A DNA stretch of 64,000 bases from Ascidia mentula. Its lineage: Eukaryota > Chordata > Ascidiacea > Phlebobranchia > Ascidiidae. The stretch covers positions 13,468,001 through 13,532,000 of the forward strand of contig OX387201.1 in the NCBI GenBank assembly GCA_947561715.1, read 5' to 3'. Shown here piece by piece: positions 51,979 to 64,000 of this stretch. The first letter of the stretch is position 1. Every line of letters starts with the position of its first letter. A model generated the notes under the pieces. That model was not told the origin of the DNA. It did no database searches and saw nothing but the letters and a program-made list of their open reading frames with translations. The position numbers and the translations under genes were made by a program.

Positions 51979-54455
51979 ATGTCCGACTCAGGTATGTGTC
52001 CAGATATATCTAAGTATTTCAACGTAGTTTTGTTTGTCCGAATGAGAAAAAACTGGACGACAACTTGGACGAAGACATAAAATATTTGTAATTAAGCATC
52101 GAATAAATATAATGTTAAGTTTCTGCTCCAGATATAAACAAACGAGTGGCGATTGTTACTGGTGGATCAAAAGGAATAGGGAGGTCAGTGGCGGTACATC
52201 TTGCTAAAGCTGGTTTCAAGGTAATGATCGGAAAACATGTGTAGAGTAATTGTTTTGTGATTATGAATGTCATTAACCCGACCGAAGTAAATAGCCTTAG
52301 GCGACTTAGAGCGGCAATTCATGACATTGCCATAGTTTCCACGTGTCATTTTATTTCGAAAGTATAGTTTTTTACGCTTGATTACCCACATTACACAGTT
52401 TTACTTTTATTTGACATGAGTCCGTATGCAGCCTCACGGTGCAGGCGTAATGGCGGTCTTTTTTAAAGTGCTAACATCCTGACAAATCATTGATAAGTGA
52501 CCAGAAACTGATTCGGATTGCACTCATATAAATAAAACATTTTTAGGTGTGTATAGCTGCAAGAAATGAAAATCAATTACACGAGGCCGAAACTGTGCTC
52601 AAGGAAATTCATTCTGACGTAACAATATTTCAGTGTGACGTCAAAAGCATCGAACAGGTTGTAATGTGTATTTTACGAATGATTTGTAAATTTTTTTTTT
52701 GCCTTTCGGATCATTTAATTGAATCATTGCCAAGGCCACCGTTTCCATTACGTAATATAACCTATTATTACTACAAGACGGCTCATACGGCAAAATAGTT
52801 GTAAGTGTCAAAGTTTAGGCCTTCATCAGGATGCAACGAAATCTTGTTACGCAGTTTTTTTTGCTTGGATGAATTACAACTCGCGTCTTTGTTTTTGATC
52901 AGGTTTCGTGCTGGACTTATTCGCCCACCGCAACGCCAACCTCTCTACCACTAAACTAAAACGTGAAATTCAAATTGGCATTTTTGTTACAGTTCAAGAA
53001 TCTTGTCAGCCACACCGAGGCAACTCTTGGACCTGTTGATGTTCTTGTCAACAACGCTGGAGTTGCACACTGCACGCTGATCGCCAACTTTATGGTGGAG
53101 AACTGGCATGAGATGATTGACATTAACTGCAAGGGTTTGGTAAACGGAGTAGCTGCAGCATTGCCGGGAATGTTGGAAAGAAAGAAGGGCCACATTGTAA
53201 ACATGTCGTCACATTTTGGACTGCATGTAAGAATTAATAAGTTACAAAAACACAAGTAAAGTCACCAAAATTTGAAATTATTCGAAAACAGGGCCCATAT
53301 GGACTTGATTATGTGGTAAGATATTTGTAACTTAGTATAGTTAACTTTCACAGTCTTTTGTTTTCGTGCATTAGCAGTTTTGTCAATTAATAATACACTT
53401 TTAAGTAATTGCCGCAATACAACATCATATACAACAGTGTCCTGAAAATTTTTGATGAATGCACGTAAAAATTACTTTGACCCATTGTGTGTAGCTGAGC
53501 CTTATTTTTAACTGATTACTTAAACTAAATTTTTATTATTTGATGTATTTGTATAATTTTGGGTCACTGACAATTTTTGAAATTTATATCTTTTTAGCCA
53601 ACCCCATGCTTTGCTGTTTACTCCGCAACCAAATGTTTCATGGAAGGCTTTACCCTGTCTTTGAGAAAGGAAATTGCATCTACCGGCATTAAATTAACTT
53701 CTATTCAACCTGGGACAGTTAACACAAGTATTATTACTGGAAACCACGACCCTGAGGTTTGCGCATGATTTAAATTGCGATTTAATAACTACAAAATTGC
53801 CTCAAGACTAGTACATGTACATACACACAGCCTAGAGGTTTTAAGATGTCAATCAAATGCTATTTTAAAGTGCATGTGACACGGTCGCAACTAAATAAGA
53901 CTTAATAGGTCGAAACGGCGGCCATTTGTCTGCAGCTCAAATTAACATCAACATCCGTTTGTTGCACTAGTTCACTTGTTGTGCCCTGCTTAATGCAAAA
54001 CTATACTAAACCGCAGTTTTACAATGTTTTCCATTCCAACGCATAAGGCTTGATGCCAGCACACGCACCAATAAAGTGACTTCTATGACGTCGCGCAACA
54101 ACAATCTCGCTTTCGCACGATTTCGTTTGCAACAGTTTAAACGTAACTTTGATCAGCTGTATTTCAAAAACCAGTCGCCGCCAGTTGCAATAGAAAATCA
54201 GTTGCAATAAAACCGTAATGAGTGAATTGGCAATGGGCAATACTATGCTATTACAACAAAATACCTAAATTTGTTCCTGGTTGTTCAAACACTTAATCCA
54301 TTTGTTTTCAGGCAGTGAAAAGATTTTCGGCCCAATTTGAGTTTAAAGCGATCGAACCGGATGACGTCGCCAGAGCTGTGGTGTTTGCTGTGACGCAACC
54401 TGGTCACGTGTCTGTACATGAGATGTGCTTAAACCATGATGAAAGTCCTCTGTAG
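51979..54455 (+). CDS. classical short-chain dehydrogenase/reductase, cluster gene C
   Basis: Six exons: 51979-51991, 52132-52220, 52547-52657, 52993-53226, 53598-53756 and 54312-54455; 249 residues, one Met fewer than A because exon 1 has a single ATG. Cofactor motif TGGSKGIG, NNAG, the Ser of NMSSHFG, and YSATK are all intact, so it should be an active NADP(H)-type SDR of unknown substrate. It differs from gene A at only a handful of residues (for example Ala for Thr in CTLIANFM, HFGLHPTP for LFGQSTPP), and introns 2-4 align almost base for base, so A and C are a recent duplicate pair. Intron 5 carries a truncated TTAA-family element absent from A. AATAAA at 54681-54686 is a likely polyadenylation signal. 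Confidence 0.88.
52780..52960 (-). mobile_element. SINE-like repeat in intron 3 of gene C
   Basis: Counterpart of the repeat at 44215-44400 in the same intron of gene A, with the same A-box-like stretch read on the minus strand (near 52935-52957) but internally shortened. Shared position means it was present before the genes duplicated. Confidence 0.45.
53869..54178 (-). mobile_element. truncated copy of the TTAA transposon in intron 5 of gene C
   Basis: Begins at TTAA (53865-53868) with agtgcatgtgacacgg, then runs as the reverse complement of about 16300-16640 (shared landmarks: gcggccatttgtctgcagct, ttttacaatgttttccattcc, ctgtatttcaaaaaccagtcg). The second terminal repeat is missing, so the copy is truncated or deleted at its right side. 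Gene A lacks it at the corresponding site, where tttaaataatatttg follows. Confidence 0.7.
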
Positions 54456-56435
54456 ATTATCATGTCACAATTTTGCATTTTTACACATAGATTGCTGCGT
54501 ACGTAAAGTTTAACGAATTAGTGTAAGGCAGGGGTTCTTATTCAGCTCCACACGAAGCAAAACTTGTAAAATCACATCGTGGTCGTGCAAGCAATTCGTG
54601 TCGAGTCATGGGCAATTGTTGCGCAACATTCGCACAATGGTTATATTATTCCGATCTTTGCATTGCGCACATTTCAATTTAATAAATCAACGTTAATTAA
54701 AAGTTGTCATTTTGCTGGTATCTGTAAGGCAAGTTCTGCGTAACCTAAAGGTTATAAGCTCCCCGCCGATGTTTTTTTCGCTAAATGGAGTCTGACTGCA
54801 ATTCCCCAAGTGTGTTTCCTAATTTTCCAATTGTAACTGCAAATCCTAAAGGTCCAGCACAGGGCAGGAGGGCCTACTGTGGCCAGCGACTTGTTTGAAA
54901 ATGACACGCGAGCTATTTTTGACACAACGACTTGTTTTCTTATGTGACATAAATGTCATCTACACCTCACAGACACAACTTGTTTCGTCCGTTACTACAA
55001 CTATGAACTGTAAGTAAAGCGACATTGTAACTTTAGCAAATAGAAGCTTTTATGTACGCATGGAAGGAGTAATTTTGCCATAAACTAAAGCTTTAAAATG
55101 ATTAAAAAGAAAAACGGCGAAACTCGTAAATTTTAAGACCAATGGACAACATATTATTTATTTGTAGAAAACGAAAACAGAAGTCACTGTGCCTTGTTTG
55201 TGTAGACCGTTCACTGATGAAAAAATTGTAAATGGGTGTATGTAGAATGTAGTAAAATCAATAGTTCCCAAACCAAGCATAAAAAATCAGTCTATCAAGC
55301 ACATATCTTTGCTTGAGTATCATGATCGCGGTTTTAAATCACGAATATTCGGATTTTATCACATATACCTCGGTGCAATTATTTGGATTTGAATTCGAGT
55401 AATTTTGTTTTCGCGACACCTGCACCAACTTGATGTTAACTAAGTCGCTGTCCGTAATTAAATCAGTCGGAATCGTTGTATTTTTAGCGACCCCGGCTGC
55501 GAATTTACCCCAAAACCTTCGACTCCAACCCCGACTCCGCAACTATGGTTTCAAAGACTATTTTTGCCAAGAGAAACTGGAAAAAATAAAAGTAGTTCTG
55601 AGCAAGTACAACTTCAAGAAAATGCATTCGAATCCCTTTTTTTTGCTTTCAATTAAAGCACCGATGTAATTGACATGATTGATACTGCAAACTACAAATT
55701 TCCATACGGGCCAACAAATGTTTCTGTAGCAAAATATCTTTTCGTTCATAAGGACTATATTGGGCTTATACCTCTGATTTGCACAACAAGTGACATTGAT
55801 ATTAACGACGCTGATCTAAATGTGAAATTCTAACAAAAGGATGAAAACATGGGCAATATTGATGGAGATAATTGCGCAATTCAAAGACTATGGGTGTATC
55901 ATTCTCAGGTTCTCTGGTTTATTCGTGGAAAAGTTTTGGAACGTTTGCTCGGTCTCATCGAGAAAATGAAAATGTTTTTGCAGGAAACAAATTCTTTAAA
56001 AATCATAAGCGGTCATCTCACCCATCATCTTGACAAAATATAAACTTCATTGCAATGGTGTAACCAGCTACTACAGGATTTAAGAAATCCTGTTAAATCT
56101 CTTTAAAATAAACTTAAACTCATTCAGGCGTGATCTATGTTTGCGCTTGTAACATTAACAAAACCTGATCTCGTTTCTGACTTTAAAAAAATGTGGCAAC
56201 CTTTACGAAAATGTTTCAAAGCGATTTCTTATAATGGCCGGGGAACCCACAAGACCTTTTAGTGTTAAATTCGAAAATGTCGATGGCGCTTGCGCTCAGT
56301 TAGAACCTTTGGACTTGACATCGATAAGTTTTGCATGATATCTGCACACTTAAATGTGGTGTCGCTAAAGAGCTTGCTAACATTTCTTAATCAAACGGTG
56401 ATAATCTCCTTCATCATCACAGTTGAATTCGAACA
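54456..56435. other. intergenic region between the dehydrogenase cluster and the claudin locus
   Basis: The first 150 bp is the 3' flank shared with gene A. From 54700 to 55660 nothing is recognisable apart from a short CT/GA-rich stretch (ttcgactccaaccccgactc, near 55516). A decayed hAT transposase lies at about 55849-56340. The claudin promoter for the first variable exon should be in the last few hundred bases. Confidence 0.45.
55849..56340 (+). pseudogene. decayed hAT-type transposase (GTF2IRD2/ZBED-like)
   Basis: An open frame at 55849-56043 contains YHSQVLWFIRGKVLERLLGL followed by FLQETN and LTHHLDKI. This matches the hAT transposase region seen in GTF2IRD2 and ZBED-type proteins (pattern YHTEVRWLSRGKVLxRFFEL .. 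FLxxK .. FLxDxxxHLNxLN). Further weak similarity continues in other frames to about 56340 (contains LVSDFKKMWQ and ACAQLEPLDL). The copy is broken by stops and is an old plain DNA transposon remnant, not a host gene. It abuts the claudin locus. Confidence 0.6.
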
Positions 56436-56706
56436 ATGGAAACAGGTAGATCTGAACTTAGATTCATCTACGTGGCAGCCGGGATTTTTACTTTTCTTGC
56501 TGTAACGTTTGTATTTGTTGCCCCATTTTGGAGGGAGTCGTCCAATCAGGCTTCAGATCAGATTTACAACACTATACAAGCCTTTGAGGGATTATGGATG
56601 TCGTGTTTGTTCGCAGGAAGAAACATTCAGTGCGTTCAGATGGGAATGACTGGCACTAGCTACACTTCGTACAATAGTTCTGGATATTACTATAATCAAA
56701 TTTATG
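56436..56706 (+). CDS. claudin variable first exon 1a
   Basis: Encodes 90 residues plus one base (donor gtaagg). TM1 is at about residues 10-31, and the claudin signature W32..GLW(52-54)..C57..C66 is complete. The rest of the loop is Tyr/Ser/Gly-rich (SYTSYNSSGYYYNQIYG) with few charges. Closest in signature to 1d (both have IQAFEGLW). Start is the first ATG after stops in frame. Confidence 0.85.
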
Positions 56707-59700
56707 GTAAGGGTTTGATTAATTAGTCTTATAAAACATTTCGCTGTTAAAATTCGTAGTAAGGCCAACACACTCTAAAAACATTTAGGTCGTTGAAGGC
56801 GTTTGAGTTTGGAAAAACAACCGTTTAATAAAGTTACTATTTCTTAATTTCTGAAAGGAATATTTTCTAAAAATCTGCCTGGCCAAGAAGTTACTGAATC
56901 ATATGAGCATATACCCATATTTGTCCAGCTGCTTAACGACAAAGCGATACAGAACTATAGAGCATGGTGAAATTTCAGGCTGGGATTGACTTATTGCGAA
57001 TATATACGCGATATTTACATCGAGGGTTAACGGCCTGAAGGTTTCATCATAAGATCGAACAAATAAATCGGTTGCTGGGAAATGCATATCCACGTGTTGC
57101 TACGGGTGTGTTGTGGATGCGATATTTATTGAATGACGTATGTCCTCTTGTACGGGGATGGCAAGGCACAGTCGAAATAAATGCGTTTTATGTTAGCCAA
57201 GTAATAAGTCGTCCATTCAGCAGGCTTAGCATTGTGGTGACGTCATTTGTATTGTTAACGATTATCTGTTATGTCTCAACGTAAGTTAGGCAGCTGTAGA
57301 GAGTTATAAATTTTAAGTATTATACAATTTTGTTTGACGCGTTTAAGCACTTTTTAATGATACACCCTTACATTTTTATGGTATCGTTTAGAAGGAGGTT
57401 ATGTATTGTGGTGTTATCATGAAACCACCAGTAGGCAAAAACGGTAAATATTTTTTGAATTTTATTTTCTTAGTTGGTGAACTGAAACAGGTTTGTAATG
57501 TCTGAGAAAGTTTCTCCTCTTTCACCCCTTCTACGGCGTGTATTGCTTGTGACTGCCATTATATCGTTTCTATTAATCACGTTCGTTCTGGCTGGGCCAT
57601 GGTGGCGTGTGACGTCATCTTGGGGCAGCGCATCGGCCATGTCCACCATTTACACGTACGAGGGAGTATTTCTCACTTGTGTGCAAAGCTCTGGTTATCA
57701 AGGCAACAACCAATGTTTCCAGCTACCAATGTATTCCACCTACAACACTGGTGGATGGTATGGATCGGGCAGCGCTATGCGGATGGGTATCTATTGTAAG
57801 TAAACACCAACTAATGAGAATTTTATTACGATTGACGATCGTTGCTGGGAAACGCTGCGAACCAATGATCTCCAAGCTTAGTATAGTTTATGTGGGCGGT
57901 TGCGGTATTGCGACGTACATTCTCGTTTGTATCACGCGATCATTCTGAAACGTCAGTTGAGTTTCGGCGGGCTAAGTGTAAGCTGGTTAGTCTGTTTTAG
58001 GGCAAAGCAGAGCGAAACTTATGTTTCTGGCGTCTATTCGTAACTTGAAAATATTTTTTTTCAAACGGTTTTATAATAACGCTAGAGATTTACGAAATTA
58101 GTTGTTTTTTTAACTCACTTTGTTAAAAATTTTTTATTCAAATAGCTCTGGCAAACGTTCAGCAAAGCGTAAAAAAACGTTTTTACTCTGTTTTGGTTTT
58201 TCATCAATTTTTTCGTATGTCTTGTCGTTTTACCATATTCTTTTGATATATATTCGTAGCAGTAGAAACTTTCTTGTAAAACAAACTATCAAACTATCTT
58301 GTAAAATGCCGCCATCATCGAAGACACGCAACGCAGCTTTTATCCTTGCTCTGTTCGCTTTTCTTATGAAAACATTTATACTTGCTGCTCCATATTGGCG
58401 AACCACTTACCAATGGAGCAGTGCGGCTGTGATGACAAATATATGGATGTTTGAGGGCCTGTTTCTATCTTGCGTTCAAGAAGGTCAACAATACTCGCAA
58501 TGCTTTCAACTGCAAATATTTATGGGCAGTTCTGGCGGGTACAACTCCGGTTATACAGGCTACATTTACAGTAAGTAGACTAATATGTAACAAAAAAAGA
58601 AGAGTTATGCAATCAAAGGCACGGTTTGATGCACATATTTTGCTGAGAGAATGTCACATGACTAACAAAACAGACAGGTCGCAGAGAAGCTCTTCCAAGG
58701 TGCTTGCCTCGTGTGGTTTACGTAAATTTCTTTAAATGGAATCATAGTGGTCTCATGTGGAGCTAGAGAGCAATTTGTTGACGTTCAAAATATTGCTTTA
58801 TCGCGACAAAGAAACACAGTGGATCAGGGGCAAAAGATACTTATATTTTGTACTTAAAGCACTTTTTTAAATTTTAGTTGATAAATAATATACTAAAAAT
58901 TAATAATATATAAAAATAATACAAACCCTTTAATTTTGTCGGTATTTTCAAAAAAATTTTGATTCGTAACAGAAAATTTTACATAAACCTTTCAATTTTG
59001 TGTTATTGCAATGTTACCAACTATCAAGTTTTGAAACCAATTTAATGGCATTGTTTAAACCAATAAAAACTTGAGACAAAATGACTAAACTATCTTTATG
59101 GCGTTGGTACTGGTGCAACGACGTTTGCGTTATGTTAATAATTAAGCGCACACTCCAAGCCAGTGTGCCATCATACAACCTTCAGCAAACAGCTAAATAG
59201 GCTTAGTTGCGTTTCACTGGGTGAGACAAATATTACAGTTTGGCGGGCAAAGGAAAGTGCCTTGTTGCTGGTTTAGTTCTGTGCAGATGTTAGAATGGAT
59301 TCTAGCGAAACAAAGATTGCAGCCAGTGTTGGTTTGGGTTTAATTTCTTTTGTTATGCAACTTATTGTATTGGTCTTACCACAATGGCGGGTCAGCTCAC
59401 GAGTGGCTTCTGAAATGAACATGAACATGATTCAAGCGTTTGAAGGCTTGTGGATTCGTTGCACCAGTTATGGATATTCGTATTGGAATTGCGATAATTA
59501 TGATACAGCCTTGATTGGTCTCCCTGGTAAGCAGGAAAATGTTTATTTTGGAAACAAAGTAACAAGATTTGGTTTTGACTCGGTGATACAATCATGTTTA
59601 CCATGTAAAATATCGTTGGAATATGATGACAGGAGATAAATCAGAAAAGTTAAAGGCTCATTGTGGTGTAACAAACTAGATAAAATCGAAGTTACTTGCT

Positions 59701-62438
59701 GATGCACAACAACATATTCGATGTAAATTGTTTAAAAAATAGTATGATGGTAACTGGCTGTTAAAATGCTTTGTCATCAAAAGTGTGTCACTAAACACAG
59801 TGGTGCTGGGACAACCAGTTGCTTTAGAAATTGGAATGTCTGCAAAATTTATAGGAACTTCTTGAATTACGCTAGTTCGGTGCTTCTTGGCACAAGAAAT
59901 ATAGAAAATCTGTTCCATTTTCCATTTGTTTAGTTAATTTTAATTGATTTGCCTGTAGTCACTTGATATTGCTGCACTTTGCAGCTTATCGCTATTATGG
60001 TGCTGAATGACAATAACAAACGTATTTATACATTACAGTCCGTCAGTTGTGCCATAAGATATCAACGAAAAAGTGTTTAAGTTTGTAATTGTGTCTGGAG
60101 ATATGAATTATCAGTATGTTAGTGATTGTGACATGGACAAAATATTGATCTGCAGTTTTTTTAAAACAAATTTTCTTCGAATCATGTATAGCAATAAAAT
60201 ATTATTGTTACATCAATAAACACAACTTTCATTTCCTTAATGTTTGCCAAGAAGGAAGAAATGATTGACGAACGAAACGTATACAATGTTTGAATTGCGA
60301 CTTCATATCAATAATGCGTGGGCACCAGATTACGTCATCGCCATTTGTCGCATGTTTGCTGAGAAATACCTTATGCCGGATACTTTTCAATGTATCAATG
60401 ATTGCGCAACATCCACCTGGTTAAATAACCTGCGTATCACCTAGATAAAAACTGCTTTAAACTGTTTTTTCTTATCTGACTGCTTCTTTGAGAAGTCAGT
60501 TGTCTTATTTCAACCTCTTTGTTTGTGCAGCTTACTTAAACGCTTTTCGAGCGTTGATGATCATCGCGTTCATAGCTTCGATGGTGGGAGTTGTGTGTTC
60601 CATTCTGGGAATGAAATGTGCCAGCATTATCGAGGAAGATGGCACTGCCAAACGATGGGTTCTGATCATTGGCGGGATATGCCACCTTTGTGCAGGTACA
60701 ATTTCATCAGCCGACACTAAAAATAAAAATCTACATTTAAAAATTCAATTCTCAACTCTTTGAGGTTGAAATTTAAATGAGATTTATTTCCATTATCCGT
60801 TTTAAAGATTTTTTGTTTAAATTTTCCAGCAGAACGGTCACAAATGCTGTTTTGCACTCCCCCCATAAACACACACACACACACACAAACACACAAACAC
60901 ACACCTTGTGTTATTGCATTAGTGATTTAATATTGTCAAATGCAAGTCATGTGTTGTTCACTGGGTTCTGCCACATAAATGCCAGCATATAAATCGTTTA
61001 ACAACATAAGCGTCGATTTTTTAACGTTTTGTAAAATATTAAGGGTGACGTTTCCAGGTTTTGGAAACACGCAAAAAAACATTTCGTCAGTCGTATCGCC
61101 CTAAACATAGGTAAACGACGCAAATTCCGTTTCGTGTCACTTTGTTTTTGCACCGAACCATAATATCATACCACTAAGTTTTAAACACTTTAATTCCGAA
61201 CCCCCTTACTGAAAGAAGGACATTTTTGTTTCACTCGGTCTATTGCAGATTCAGCTAATTATGAAATAGCATACAAATCTGTTACGCAACAATGCCGCTT
61301 CTTACCATTATGCCACAACAACTGCTGCGCTGCGTAACAATCCACGAGACATTTGTGTTTGTCCTGATTGGGGCGGTGATAATTAAGGTCATTTCAAACT
61401 AGCCTAACGCACAGTATAATGTATGTGGTTTTTCTGAGAATAGTTTTTAATTTAAACCAAATCCAGGGGTGATAATACATACCTTGTCACCCCTGTTTGC
61501 TTGTGAGGGGTGACATGTCACCCCAGTCACCCCTAAATCGACGCCTATGTTTAACAACATACTTGAGATATGGTGAAATCCATTACATAAAGAGCATGCA
61601 GTTCTCTTATTTATTAAAATATTTGTTTTCAGGTGTTCTTACCGGTGTTTGCGTGTCGTGGTACGCTGCCGAAGTTGTGAACGAGTATTACAACCCAATG
61701 TATCAAGCTCAAAAGTTAAAATACACCCTGGGCGCATGTTTGTATGTTGGTTGGATAGCCATGTTGTTTTCTTTGGTCACTGGATGTATGATGTCTTGCT
61801 GTACATGTTTCAACAAGCCTGTTGATGACCAGACATACAAATATGCACCAAACAAGAAACAGCAATACGCCTACACCCCCCCTGCTGGTATGTGTATTTT
61901 TCGTTTCATGAGGTTGTTGGCACCAGCAATGTAACAAAAAGCAACAGATTATGCTTTAAAACACGTCGTTGTCAAATTTTATAACCCCAATTAAAACACA
62001 CAATAAAATGCAACTAATATTATTACCAAATGAAAACTAGAAAGCATTTCGGTTTTGCACCTAATGCGATGTACACACACTTATAACAAGTCATACAAAA
62101 TGCAAGTACATTTTGCTTTAGCAGCGTACAAATTAAGCAAATGTTTACATATAGAGCCAGTGGCATACAGTAAAGAGCCAGTTTATGAGCAACGGCACAC
62201 GATGCAATACGATAGAAGATCTGATTACTATGGAAAGAGTTCCTCTCGACGAAACGACAGAGCTTCATCGCACCATTCATCTCGTGATCGCGACCGTGAC
62301 CGTGATCGTGCGTCTTCACGTCGTCGTGATTCAGTTTCGTCATCAGAAGAGAGTCACAGCACTAACGGTCGGGCCAAGTCTGGGCATGGCGGCAGCAGGC
62401 ACGACAGCGACCTCATGCGGGCAAGCGGATTTGTCTGA
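56436..62438 (+). CDS. claudin locus with four alternative first exons and three shared exons
   Basis: Four first exons (56436-56706, 57498-57795, 58306-58570, 59295-59526) each start with ATG, encode TM1 plus most of extracellular loop 1, and end in phase 1 with a gtaag donor. A single set of exons follows: 60531-60695, 61633-61887 and 62155-62438. Any first exon joins in frame, giving 324, 333, 322 or 311 residues. Claudins are four-TM tight-junction proteins whose first loop sets paracellular charge and size selectivity. No copy of exons 2-4 lies between the first exons, so separate tandem genes are unlikely. Vertebrate CLDN10 and CLDN18 use two alternative first exons in the same way; four is an expansion. 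The alternative-exon reading is inferred from phase and layout. Confidence 0.85.
57498..57795 (+). CDS. claudin variable first exon 1b
   Basis: Encodes 99 residues plus one base (donor gtaagt). A longer N-terminus (MSEKVSPLSPLLRR) precedes TM1 (15-33). Signature: W36, then GVF (56-58) where claudins have GLW, C61 and C73; the usual third Trp is Phe. The loop is Tyr/Gly-rich with one late Arg. The TCVQ..QCFQL pattern is shared with 1c, so these two are sister exons. Confidence 0.85.
58306..58570 (+). CDS. claudin variable first exon 1c
   Basis: Encodes 88 residues plus one base (donor gtaagt). An in-frame open stretch extends upstream of this ATG but is not claudin-like, so MPPSSKTRN is taken as the start. 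TM1 is at 10-29; signature W31, GLF (51-53), C56 and C66, with Phe for the third Trp as in 1b. The loop ends in a Gly/Tyr-rich run (GGYNSGYTGYIY). Confidence 0.83.
59295..59526 (+). CDS. claudin variable first exon 1d
   Basis: Encodes 77 residues plus one base (donor gtaagc). TM1 is at 8-29; signature W31, GLW (51-53), C56 and C66 complete. It is the shortest loop and the most claudin-like at its end (ALIGLP joined to AYLNAFRALM, compare ALxAxLQAARALM of vertebrate claudins), with two Asp after the second Cys. It is the first exon nearest the shared exons and may be the ancestral one. Confidence 0.85.
60531..62438 (+). CDS. claudin shared exons 2-4 (TM2-TM4 and tail)
   Basis: Exon 2 (60531-60695): AYLNAFRALMIIAFIASMVG, TM2, then GMKCASII and the start of TM3. 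Exon 3 (61633-61887): the end of TM3, extracellular loop 2 with the claudin motif EYYNPMYQAQKLKYTLGA, TM4 (YVGWIAMLFSLVTGCMMS) and juxtamembrane CCTC, a probable palmitoylation site. Exon 4 (62155-62438): an unusually charged tail with alternating Arg-Asp (SSRDRDRDRDRASSRRRDS) and a C-terminal SGFV, a plausible PDZ-binding end comparable to YV of other claudins. All three internal junctions are phase 1. The acceptor of exon 4 (acatatag) is weak in pyrimidines. AATAAA lies at 62884-62889. Confidence 0.88.
60869..60904. repeat. CA-rich microsatellite
   Basis: A run of acacacac interrupted by single aaac variants, in the claudin intron between shared exons 2 and 3. Confidence 0.9.
61005..61549. 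mobile_element. hAT-type non-autonomous element, copy 2 (claudin intron)
   Basis: 545 bp, ends cataagcgtcgattt and aaatcgacgcctatg, with a perfect 8-bp target duplication tttaacaa (60997-61004 and 61550-61557). It aligns along its length with 35903-36375 but has about 70 extra bases near the left end (including gtttccaggttttggaaac). Inside near the right end is a short palindrome-like ggggtgacatgtcacccc. It lies in the intron between shared claudin exons 2 and 3. Confidence 0.85.
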
Positions 62439-63637
62439 CTCGCATGTATTTCGACAATCCACTAAGTTTTTATTGTCGGCACGCGTAATTGGCCTCAAAC
62501 GTCACTTTGGTAACAGCCGTTGTTGACTGTAAGTTAAAACCCAGGTTCATAAGTTATAGATCTTGAATTTGTAAAAGGATTTCCATTTACGTAATATTTA
62601 ATTATTACATACAACAATTATCAAAATAATAGCCGATGGCACGTTCACTTCATGTAATTGGAGTATTGTTTCGTTCACATTTTGTACATAGGTTTTTATA
62701 CCGTTTTGTATGTCGTTGTGTTATGCATTGACTGCTCATTTGTGTTTTGTAAAAGTAATTTGTGTGCAATTACGAAGAAAAGAAATTAGGCTATGTATTT
62801 AGATAATCAGGTGATCTAATAATCGACATTTTATATTGGCTGCCACGCTGTACGTGACGATGTAAATTTATTTTACAAATATTAATAAAATGTATATTTG
62901 TCACATAGTATTTTGTTTTATCAACAGTTATATTTTGCGATTTTATGCTTAGCATTACACTTGTTTTTAATTTTTAAAATGTGCTTGATGCATTTGCAAC
63001 GAAGGACATAAATCAATTTTGGATAAACGCGAAACTTAACTTTGACAAGAAATTTTCTATTTCGTGATTTATTGAGATTTAAATTGCATTTCTGGTAACG
63101 CGTATTGCAACGCACGCAAATGCCCTCGTGCAGTAAAATCGAGGTATTAAAGCGACAGCCGACAAGCTTAGGATTTGCGCCCCTCTTTTGCCACGCGAAT
63201 GGCAAGACAATGCATGGGGGAGAGATAATTGAGTATAACAACCCAGTAAACTTGATTGTGTTGCAAGGTTTCCGATTGGCCTGCCCTTAGCCGGCAATAA
63301 ACGCTCGTAACATTGCAGTTCACTTTCGCAGAAGTTGTCAGCAGAAGTGTATATACAGAGCCTCAAGGTGAGACTCGGGTAATACTAGCTGGAAGTCTAG
63401 CACTGGTAAGGCCGCGTTTTTTTCCTGCAGTTTTGTTTGCGTTAATTTTTAAACCAGCAGAGAAAATGTGTCATTGTGAACGCCTGTACTGTCTATGCTA
63501 ACAACATATCGTAAACGTGAAATAGAGAAGAATCAAACTTTTTTTGTTTGAGATTTAATTTGAAAATAAACAATCGTGTTTTTAAAGTTTTGCAGTTAAT
63601 TCTGTTCCAACTGATGTCGAACACATAAAGATAGAAC
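62439..63637. other. intergenic region between the claudin and the Cys-rich protein gene
   Basis: Contains the claudin 3' untranslated region up to the AATAAA at 62884-62889. From 62900 to 63637 no gene is recognised. The 5' region of the next gene should be in the last 300 bp. Confidence 0.5.
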
Positions 63638-64000
63638 ATGAATGTTTTGTTATTTCTTTGTCTTACCTCTATATCTGTGCTGTGGAAACAGACAACAGGT
63701 TGGTTCTATTTTCCCAGTTGCGTAACAATGGTAATTGTTTTAACCTTGTATTACAGCACTCAGCTGCATCACATGTACTGGTGAATCTTTGCAAGAATGT
63801 TATGCGACTGGAAAAGTAAAGCAATGTTGGCAACGGCAACAGGTAATATTTCTACTTTGATTGTTATTTGTGATAGTGCAGATTAAAAGTTAAAACAACA
63901 TCTGTTGTTTTTTAATCATCGATAAAACGAAACAAAACCCCCAATTATATATTGCAGGTATGTTACACAGAAGTGCGTTACGAACAACCTCACCAAATCA
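63638..64000 (+). CDS. secreted or surface Cys-rich protein, N-terminal part (runs off right edge)
   Basis: Exon 1 at 63638-63698 encodes a signal peptide (MNVLLFLCLTSISVLWKQTT). Exon 2 at 63757-63842 continues ALSCITCTGESLQECYATGK, then QCWQRQQ. Exon 3 begins at 63958 with VCYTEVRYEQPHQI and is cut by the window end. Junctions are GT-AG with phases 1 and 0. Cys spacing (CxxC, then three further Cys at intervals of about 8-10, and a CYTEVR-like strand) resembles the start of a Ly6/uPAR three-finger domain, but only five Cys are visible, so other small Cys-rich folds are possible. Confidence 0.6.

What the first reader, a model, noticed from the sequence alone, without database searches (positions are those of the whole stretch)
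56436..62438. Claudin gene with an array of four interchangeable first exons
Four ATG-started exons, each carrying TM1 and the W..GLW/F..C..C loop of claudins, lie in a row about 0.8-1.1 kb apart. All end in phase 1 with gtaag donors, and a single set of exons 2-4 follows, opening in the matching phase. Known vertebrate precedents (CLDN10, CLDN18) have two such exons. Here one constant body could be joined to four different pore-forming loops, a UGT1-like or protocadherin-like layout for paracellular selectivity.
Basis: partly seen in the sequence, partly recalled or inferred. Interest (0 to 1): 0.85.

Follow-up and report, generated by a model that had tools for sequence, protein, structure and literature searches.

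The report
Claudin gene with four first exons
A sea-squirt gene for a claudin, the protein that seals and gates the gap between epithelial cells, carries four different starting exons in front of one shared remainder, so one gene could make four differently shaped gates; two other claudin genes in the same genome appear to carry spare copies of the middle exons as well.

Summary
Four ATG-led claudin first exons (56436-56706, 57498-57795, 58306-58570, 59295-59526) precede one set of exons 2-4 (60531-62438). All four have GTAAG donors and end in phase 1, matching exon 2. HMMs built only from other loci find all four (E 3e-19 to 4e-9; reversed control 0.68), and all four spliced products pass PF00822 (57-75 bits). 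Scans found no further claudin exon in the window or the next 10 kb. Alternative first-exon splicing is the best reading; no transcript data were available.

The finding widens. Two other claudin loci have tandem first, second and third exons in the order 1-1-1-2-2-3-3-4. Splice phases match, and 12 of 12 combinations at each locus translate into complete claudin-like proteins ending TEYV. In one, the two third exons are 43 nt apart and including both breaks the frame. A fourth locus has two first exons. Ten searches of an open-access library showed no report of this. Exons 1a-1c also sit, without a body, on another chromosome; the two copies differ under constraint (pN/pS 0.31), but which copy is constrained is unresolved. 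A new variant of the CLDN10/CLDN18 design.

The parts
56436..56706 (+). Alternative first exon 1a: ATG, TM1 and most of ECL1 (GLW..C..C), 90 codons + 1 nt, donor GTAAGG
   Evidence: leave-locus-out HMM E 4.2e-9
57498..57795 (+). Alternative first exon 1b (GVF..C..C), 99 codons + 1 nt, donor GTAAGT
   Evidence: leave-locus-out HMM E 1.5e-9
58306..58570 (+). Alternative first exon 1c (GLF..C..C), 88 codons + 1 nt, donor GTAAGT
   Evidence: leave-locus-out HMM E 3.8e-9
59295..59526 (+). Alternative first exon 1d, the one most like vertebrate claudins (GLW..C..CDNYDTALIGLP), 77 codons + 1 nt, donor GTAAGC
   Evidence: leave-locus-out HMM E 3.3e-19; best Pfam score of the four
60531..60695 (+). Constant exon 2: TM2, intracellular loop, TM3; phase 1-1, 165 nt
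   Evidence: leave-locus-out HMM E 8e-16
61633..61887 (+). Constant exon 3: ECL2 (YYNPMY) and TM4; phase 1-1, 255 nt
   Evidence: leave-locus-out HMM E 7e-20
62125..62438 (+). Constant exon 4: C-terminal cytoplasmic tail ending GFV, stop TGA (tandem acceptor, may start at 62122)
62884..62889 (+). Candidate polyadenylation signal AATAAA, the first AATAAA/ATTAAA after exon 4
   Evidence: weak, since other AATAAA/ATTAAA words also occur between the exons (14 listed in 56-63.4 kb)
56273..59336 (+). Segment (exons 1a-1c plus the first 42 nt of 1d) also present in three pieces, 94-97% identical, on another chromosome at C72:3913963-3917737 (-), with no claudin exon 2 or 3 found in the 20 kb read

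Best explanation
This is one claudin gene with four alternative first exons. Each first exon supplies the start codon, TM1 and nearly all of the first extracellular loop, the part that lines and tunes the paracellular pore in known claudins (recalled). A transcript carries one of them, and its phase-1 GTAAG donor is spliced to the single acceptor at 60531, giving one of four claudins with the same TM2-TM4, second loop and cytoplasmic tail. Shown: the exons, donors, acceptor, phases, no private bodies found, claudin identity of all four products by Pfam, and purifying selection acting on 1a-1c in at least one of two genomic copies. Inferred: that each first exon has its own promoter rather than being chosen from one long transcript, that transcription from an upstream exon skips the later first exons because they lack a strong 3' splice site, and that the four loops give different permeability. 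The layout fits a wider habit in this genome of multiplying single claudin exons besides whole genes.
For: Exon anatomy, phases and donors. All four spliced products match PF00822 at 66, 61, 57 and 75 bits against a cut-off of 26.7; the two that were compared with solved structures (1d, and 1b without its tail) match claudins, CLDN4 best at E 4e-31 and 5e-24. HMMs trained on other loci find four first exons, one exon 2 and one exon 3 (the scan with all exons, agrees). Acceptor-like signals within 120 nt upstream are no better than at random positions for 9 of 10 first exons in three loci (p 0.16 to 0.81), with 1d at p 0.048, unremarkable among ten; first exons need none. Other claudin loci repeat the principle with the same phase-1 exon 1/2 junction. 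Between the C72 copy and the window there are 12 nonsynonymous changes per 645 sites against 11 synonymous per 186 (pN/pS 0.31, p 0.006 against neutrality of both), and nonsynonymous sites diverge less than the surrounding non-coding DNA (p 0.002).
Against: No RNA evidence was available for any junction. The C72 segment shows that first exons of this gene can be copied without a body, so loose first exons do exist; and the substitution test cannot tell which of the two copies is constrained (p 0.18 against one copy being neutral). Taken alone none of the four first exons reaches Pfam's cut-off, and 1b and 1c get no claudin row at all; both carry Phe for the motif Trp. 1a-1c have 22-26 residues after the second Cys against 9-11 in the other 11 first exons compared (four of those 11 rows had been typed one residue short), so their fold in that stretch is untested. 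The best acceptor-like site of the ten lies upstream of 1d, so cis-splicing of an upstream exon onto 1d is not excluded.
Confidence: 0.85

Rival explanations
1. Exons 1a-1c are relics: tandem claudin genes lost their bodies and only 1d-2-3-4 is a working gene.
For: 1d is the most canonical first exon and the nearest to the body; the C72 segment is a first-exon cassette without a body.
Against: No stops in 1a-1c despite 35-43% mutual protein identity; all three keep GTAAG donors in the right phase; no trace of lost exons 2 or 3 between the first exons; substitution pattern against neutrality of both copies, p 0.006.
Confidence: 0.08
2. One long transcript is made and the first exon is chosen by spliced-leader trans-splicing to acceptors just upstream of each ATG, rather than by four promoters.
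For: The genome holds 1,672 exact matches (841+831) to the Ciona spliced leader plus donor and 0 to the reversed control; most transcript models with precisely mapped 5' ends in PMC2760879 are trans-spliced, 11,797 of 12,615 (passage). An acceptor-like site 102 nt upstream of 1d scores p 0.048.
Against: The other 9 of 10 first exons in three loci show nothing beyond chance (p 0.16 to 0.81). The matrix was trained on only 13 cis acceptors, so the test is weak.
Confidence: 0.15
3. Assembly artefact: haplotype copies collapsed or misjoined, giving a false array.
For: A 94-97% identical segment sits elsewhere in the assembly.
Against: The four exons differ by 57-68% at protein level, far beyond alleles; arrays of the same kind occur at three other places.
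Confidence: 0.02

Closest known systems
CLDN10 (claudin-10a/10b) of vertebrates
   Same: Variants that differ in their first exon and in function as anion or cation channels (PMC7642450, passages)
   Different: Two main variants against four first exons here; no duplicated internal exons known to me (recalled)
CLDN18 (18.1/18.2)
   Same: Splice variants of one claudin gene; the two first exons are recalled, one search showed only the title and start of the abstract of PMC11178514
   Different: Two first exons; one body (recalled)
Clustered protocadherins and UGT1 (recalled)
   Same: Row of variable first exons joined to one constant set
   Different: Those have many more variable exons with known promoters; promoters were not established here
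Dscam (recalled) and muscle myosin heavy chain mutually exclusive exon clusters (titles and abstract starts)
   Same: Tandem phase-matched copies of internal exons, as in the sister claudin loci L058 and L059
   Different: The window gene has only first-exon copies; no splicing regulation was shown
Ordinary claudin genes of the same genome (C67:6226924 and its tandem neighbour, C1:11829231)
   Same: Same exon 1/2 phase and exon boundaries
   Different: One exon of each kind was found; they multiply as whole genes

Membership tests
Claudin (PMP22/EMP/MP20/claudin family) | Match to PF00822 over the curated cut-off | tested here: met
   4 of 4 spliced isoforms, 57-75 bits against 26.7
Claudin (PMP22/EMP/MP20/claudin family) | W-GLW-C-C signature in the first extracellular loop (recalled motif) | tested here: inconclusive
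   Cysteines and first Trp in 4 of 4; GLW in 1a and 1d, GVF in 1b, GLF in 1c
Claudin (PMP22/EMP/MP20/claudin family) | Sequence homology across TM1-TM4 to claudins of solved structure | tested here: met
   1d isoform: CLDN4 residues 10-197, E 4e-31; 1b isoform without tail: CLDN4, E 5e-24; 1a and 1c isoforms not run
Claudin (PMP22/EMP/MP20/claudin family) | Localises to tight junctions and seals or conducts | not testable with these tools
   needs expression and electrophysiology
Alternative-first-exon claudin gene (CLDN10/CLDN18 type) | Several coding first exons with TM1+ECL1, phase-matched to one exon 2, no private bodies | tested here: met
Alternative-first-exon claudin gene (CLDN10/CLDN18 type) | Each first exon found in mRNA joined to the common exon 2 | not testable with these tools
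   no RNA data held
Alternative-first-exon claudin gene (CLDN10/CLDN18 type) | Own promoter for each first exon | not tested
   promoters not scanned; only upstream 3' splice signals were scored
Mutually exclusive exon array (Dscam-like) | Tandem homologous internal exons of equal phase | tested here: not met
   window: one exon 2 and one exon 3 only. Met at sister loci L058 and L059
Mutually exclusive exon array (Dscam-like) | Only one copy used per transcript | not testable with these tools
   For L059 exon 3, the frame break and the 43-nt gap predict it; for exon 2 of both loci and exon 3 of L058 double inclusion stays open in the cases tried; no RNA

The most novel reading that the evidence does not exclude
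This tunicate diversifies tight junctions by exon arrays. Four claudin loci (4x1x1, 3x2x2, 3x2x2 and 2x1x1) could encode 30 claudins. In two of them both extracellular loops can be exchanged independently (exon 1 carries the first loop, exon 3 the second), a Dscam-like combinatorial code for paracellular pores and cell-cell contacts in an invertebrate chordate.
Probability: 0.5. Interest if true: 0.85.

Novelty: new variant of a known kind. Interest (0 to 1): 0.74.

Why it matters
If the isoforms are made, a chordate outside the vertebrates varies its epithelial gates by swapping exons besides multiplying genes. The swapped units coincide with functional modules: exon 1 is pore loop 1, exon 3 is the second loop, and the tail with its PDZ-type end stays constant. 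That gives natural chimeras for asking which loop sets selectivity and which sets partner choice. It also bears on whether CLDN10/CLDN18-type alternative first exons are an old chordate trait or arose repeatedly.

Tried and rejected
Spliced-leader choice of first exon: 9 of 10 first exons show no upstream acceptor signal beyond random window positions, and 1d is borderline at p 0.048; kept as a rival only. The first exons of the C69 locus were not in that test.

Exon trees: I hoped to learn whether the 3x2x2 layout was inherited by the two loci from one ancestor. Starred branches were w1a+w1b+w1c (99/98), B1i+B1ii (98/98), C1+D1+E1+F1 and C1+D1+E1 for exon 1, none for exon 2, and C3+Cb3+D3+E3 against the rest for exon 3. 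The eight AU tests that were run gave p 0.10 to 0.37, so no grouping was rejected; the exons are too short and too diverged.

Haplotype-copy artefact for the C72 segment: it sits inside a 19.7 Mb contig and no body was found, so I read it as a dispersed duplication; a mis-assembly is not excluded. How it was copied was not examined.

Orthologues in other tunicates: the collections offered are bacterial, archaeal, viral, phage, plasmid or metagenomic and were not searched, so conservation is untested.

Other claudin-like clusters (C2:1.41-1.43 Mb, C73:6.36 Mb, C2:18.14 Mb) seem to have an intron inside the first loop and were read only in part; I claim nothing about arrays there. In one search, 24 of the 59 loci then held were scanned (the rest overlap these or the window, apart from ends of up to about 750 bases), and rows with E of 0.5 or more were not printed. 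A regular-expression scan found first exons in 6 of 19 loci and no second or third exon; it was too strict and was replaced by the HMM scan. The genome searches state that only the best candidates are scored, so locus counts are lower bounds.
Full report
WHAT IS THERE. Four exons at 56436-56706, 57498-57795, 58306-58570 and 59295-59526 each begin with ATG, encode TM1 and the first extracellular loop of a claudin, have a length of 1 mod 3 and are followed by GTAAG. A single body follows: exon 2 at 60531-60695, exon 3 at 61633-61887 and exon 4 at 62125-62438 with a TGA stop. The four spliced products are 334, 343, 332 and 321 residues long. Each passes the PF00822 cut-off of 26.7 bits with 66, 61, 57 and 75 bits. 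The two isoforms compared with solved structures (1d, and 1b without its tail) match claudins, best CLDN4 at E 4e-31 and 5e-24. Taken alone, first exons 1b and 1c get no claudin row in Pfam, and 1a and 1d only weak ones below the cut-off, so I built a stricter test.

IS IT MORE THAN CHANCE. HMMs for exon 1, exon 2 and exon 3 were trained on claudin exons of other loci in the same genome only (10, 9 and 9 rows). In the window they find the four first exons at E 3.3e-19, 1.5e-9, 3.8e-9 and 4.2e-9, exon 2 at 8e-16 and exon 3 at 7e-20. The next best window hits are 0.53, 0.85 and 0.71; the reversed-sequence controls are at best 0.68, 0.77 and 0.11. A scan of the 64 kb window and the next 10 kb gives no credible fifth first exon and no second body exon. 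354 codons without a stop have a probability near 2e-11 under local composition.

SELECTION. A segment of the window, 56273-59336, holding 1a, 1b, 1c and the first 42 nt of 1d, is present in three pieces, 94-97% identical, on another chromosome, C72:3913963-3917737, minus strand; the copy carries extra sequence at two points. No exon 2 or 3 was found in the 20 kb read around it. Between the two copies exons 1a-1c show 12 nonsynonymous differences per 645 sites and 11 synonymous per 186, pN/pS 0.31. Neutral evolution of both copies is rejected (p 0.006), and nonsynonymous sites differ less than the non-coding remainder (p 0.002). The data do not reject one copy being free and one constrained (p 0.18). 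At least one copy of 1a-1c has therefore been kept as coding sequence. This also shows that first exons can travel without a body.

THE REST OF THE GENOME. The window lies in a 195.8 Mb assembly that holds 841 forward and 831 reverse exact matches to the Ciona spliced-leader exon with its donor and none to the reversed control (the leader sequence is recalled). That supports a Ciona-type tunicate; I cannot name the species. Whole-genome searches with two window proteins and two Pfam models brought in other claudin loci. Two of them are the real surprise.

Locus A (L059, C67:6794601-6800524, minus strand) reads exon 1, 1, 1, exon 2, 2, exon 3, 3, exon 4. Locus B (L058 with L006, C1, minus strand, 19031277 down to 19022624) reads 1, 1, 1, 2, 2, 3, 3, 4, 5 (the 4/5 junction of B was chosen by me among several open ones). 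Every one of these first exons ends in phase 1. The second exons are phase 1-1 (159-165 nt). The third exons are 131 nt, phase 1-0, in A and 138 nt, phase 1-1, in B, in each case matching the following exon. All 12 of 12 combinations in A give a stop-free protein of 212-216 residues ending NRTEYV (its printed lengths of 213-217 count the stop). All 12 of 12 in B give 224-235 residues ending RTEYV (printed lengths likewise count the stop). Two of the 12 combinations from each locus, chosen by me, pass PF00822 at 68-91 bits, and the one A isoform compared with solved structures matches CLDN19 at E 1e-35. Leave-locus-out HMMs find every array exon: A exon 1 at 6e-21, 2e-18, 3e-8, exon 2 at 3e-8, 1e-6, exon 3 at 1e-21, 7e-16; B exon 1 at 7e-20, 2e-11, 3e-10, exon 2 at 2e-16, 1e-14, exon 3 at 2e-18, 3e-15; next best hits in these loci are 0.95 or worse and reversed controls 4.7 or worse where there is any hit. 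In A the two third exons are 43 nt apart, below the small-intron peak of 58-59 bp reported for two Ciona species (PMC10573349, passages), and joining both breaks the frame. That is the classical anatomy of mutually exclusive exons, though no RNA was seen. For exon 3 of B, and for exon 2 of both loci, double inclusion stays open in the cases tried, so exclusion there would need regulation.

A fourth locus (C69, minus strand) has two first exons, at 14517598 and 14512539, both ending in phase 1, before one exon 2 and one exon 3. The stretch 14509357-14519068 is covered by L024, L023, L062 and L046, and no further body exon was found in it. By contrast C67:6226924 and its neighbour at 6230239, and C1:11829231, look like ordinary one-of-each genes. 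So this genome enlarges claudins both by whole genes and by single exons.

HOW IT PROBABLY WORKS. In the alignment to CLDN4, exon 1 covers TM1 and the first loop, exon 2 TM2 to TM3, exon 3 the second loop with its YYNPMY stretch and TM4, and the last exon the tail. From established claudin biology (recalled), the first loop sets pore charge and size and the second takes part in adhesion between cells. In the window gene only the first loop is exchanged. 1d is canonical. 1a-1c form a supported group (99/98) with 22-26 residues between the second Cys and the exon end, against 9-11 in the 11 other first exons compared (four of those rows were typed one residue short), rich in Gly, Ser and Tyr. 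They are thus not just charge variants but have a longer stretch before TM2. Choice is most simply by separate promoters. Nine of ten first exons tested lack an upstream 3' splice signal beyond chance (p 0.16-0.81), and 1d has a borderline one (p 0.048) 102 nt upstream; weak upstream acceptors would also explain how a transcript from 1a skips 1b and 1c. This step is inference, and promoters were not scanned.

LITERATURE. Ten searches of the open-access library showed no paper that describes alternative-exon arrays in a tunicate claudin. Three of these lists were cut (20 of 35, 15 of 528, 10 of 16), so the statement covers what was listed. I judged most entries by search listings and read passages of PMC11203038, PMC7642450, PMC2937028, PMC10573349, PMC2760879 and PMC6836712. 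PMC11203038 reports three tunicate orthologues of human claudins; PMC2937028 included Ciona claudins in a tree.

VERDICT. As a single gene it extends the CLDN10/CLDN18 design from two to four. Together with loci A and B it suggests exon-array diversification of tight junctions, which would be new if transcripts confirm it.

Noticed in passing
L059 (C67:6793501-6802000): Claudin locus with exon order 1-1-1-2-2-3-3-4; 12 of 12 combinations are open and end NRTEYV; third exons only 43 nt apart.
   Followed up: yes
L058 (C1:19022501-19032500) with L006: Second claudin locus with the 3x2x2 layout plus two constant last exons; 12 of 12 combinations are open and end RTEYV.
   Followed up: yes
L046, L062, L023, L024 (C69:14509357-14519068): Two phase-1 claudin first exons about 5 kb apart before one body.
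   Followed up: partly
L028+L029 (C72:3913963-3917737): Dispersed copy of the first-exon cassette 1a-1c without exons 2-4, 94-97% identical, reading frames and GTAAG donors intact, with two insertions relative to the window; how it was copied is unknown.
   Followed up: partly
C1:15239661-15330939: Tandem spliced-leader matches, mostly at 718-720 nt spacing in the part listed, among 1,672 exact matches in the genome; the unit seems longer than the one I recall for Ciona intestinalis.
   Followed up: no
window 52547-53259: Exons of a short-chain dehydrogenase upstream (two exon pieces joined match PF00106, 94 bits); further pieces seem to run to about 54455.
   Followed up: no
window 63758-64000: Start of a u-PAR/Ly-6 (three-finger) domain gene just downstream (PF00021, 24.1 bits, slightly under its cut-off of 24.8).
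   Followed up: no
window 62125-62438: Constant tail rich in Arg, Asp and Ser (RDRDRDRDRASSRRRDSVSSSEES), much longer than in the two sister loci.
   Followed up: no
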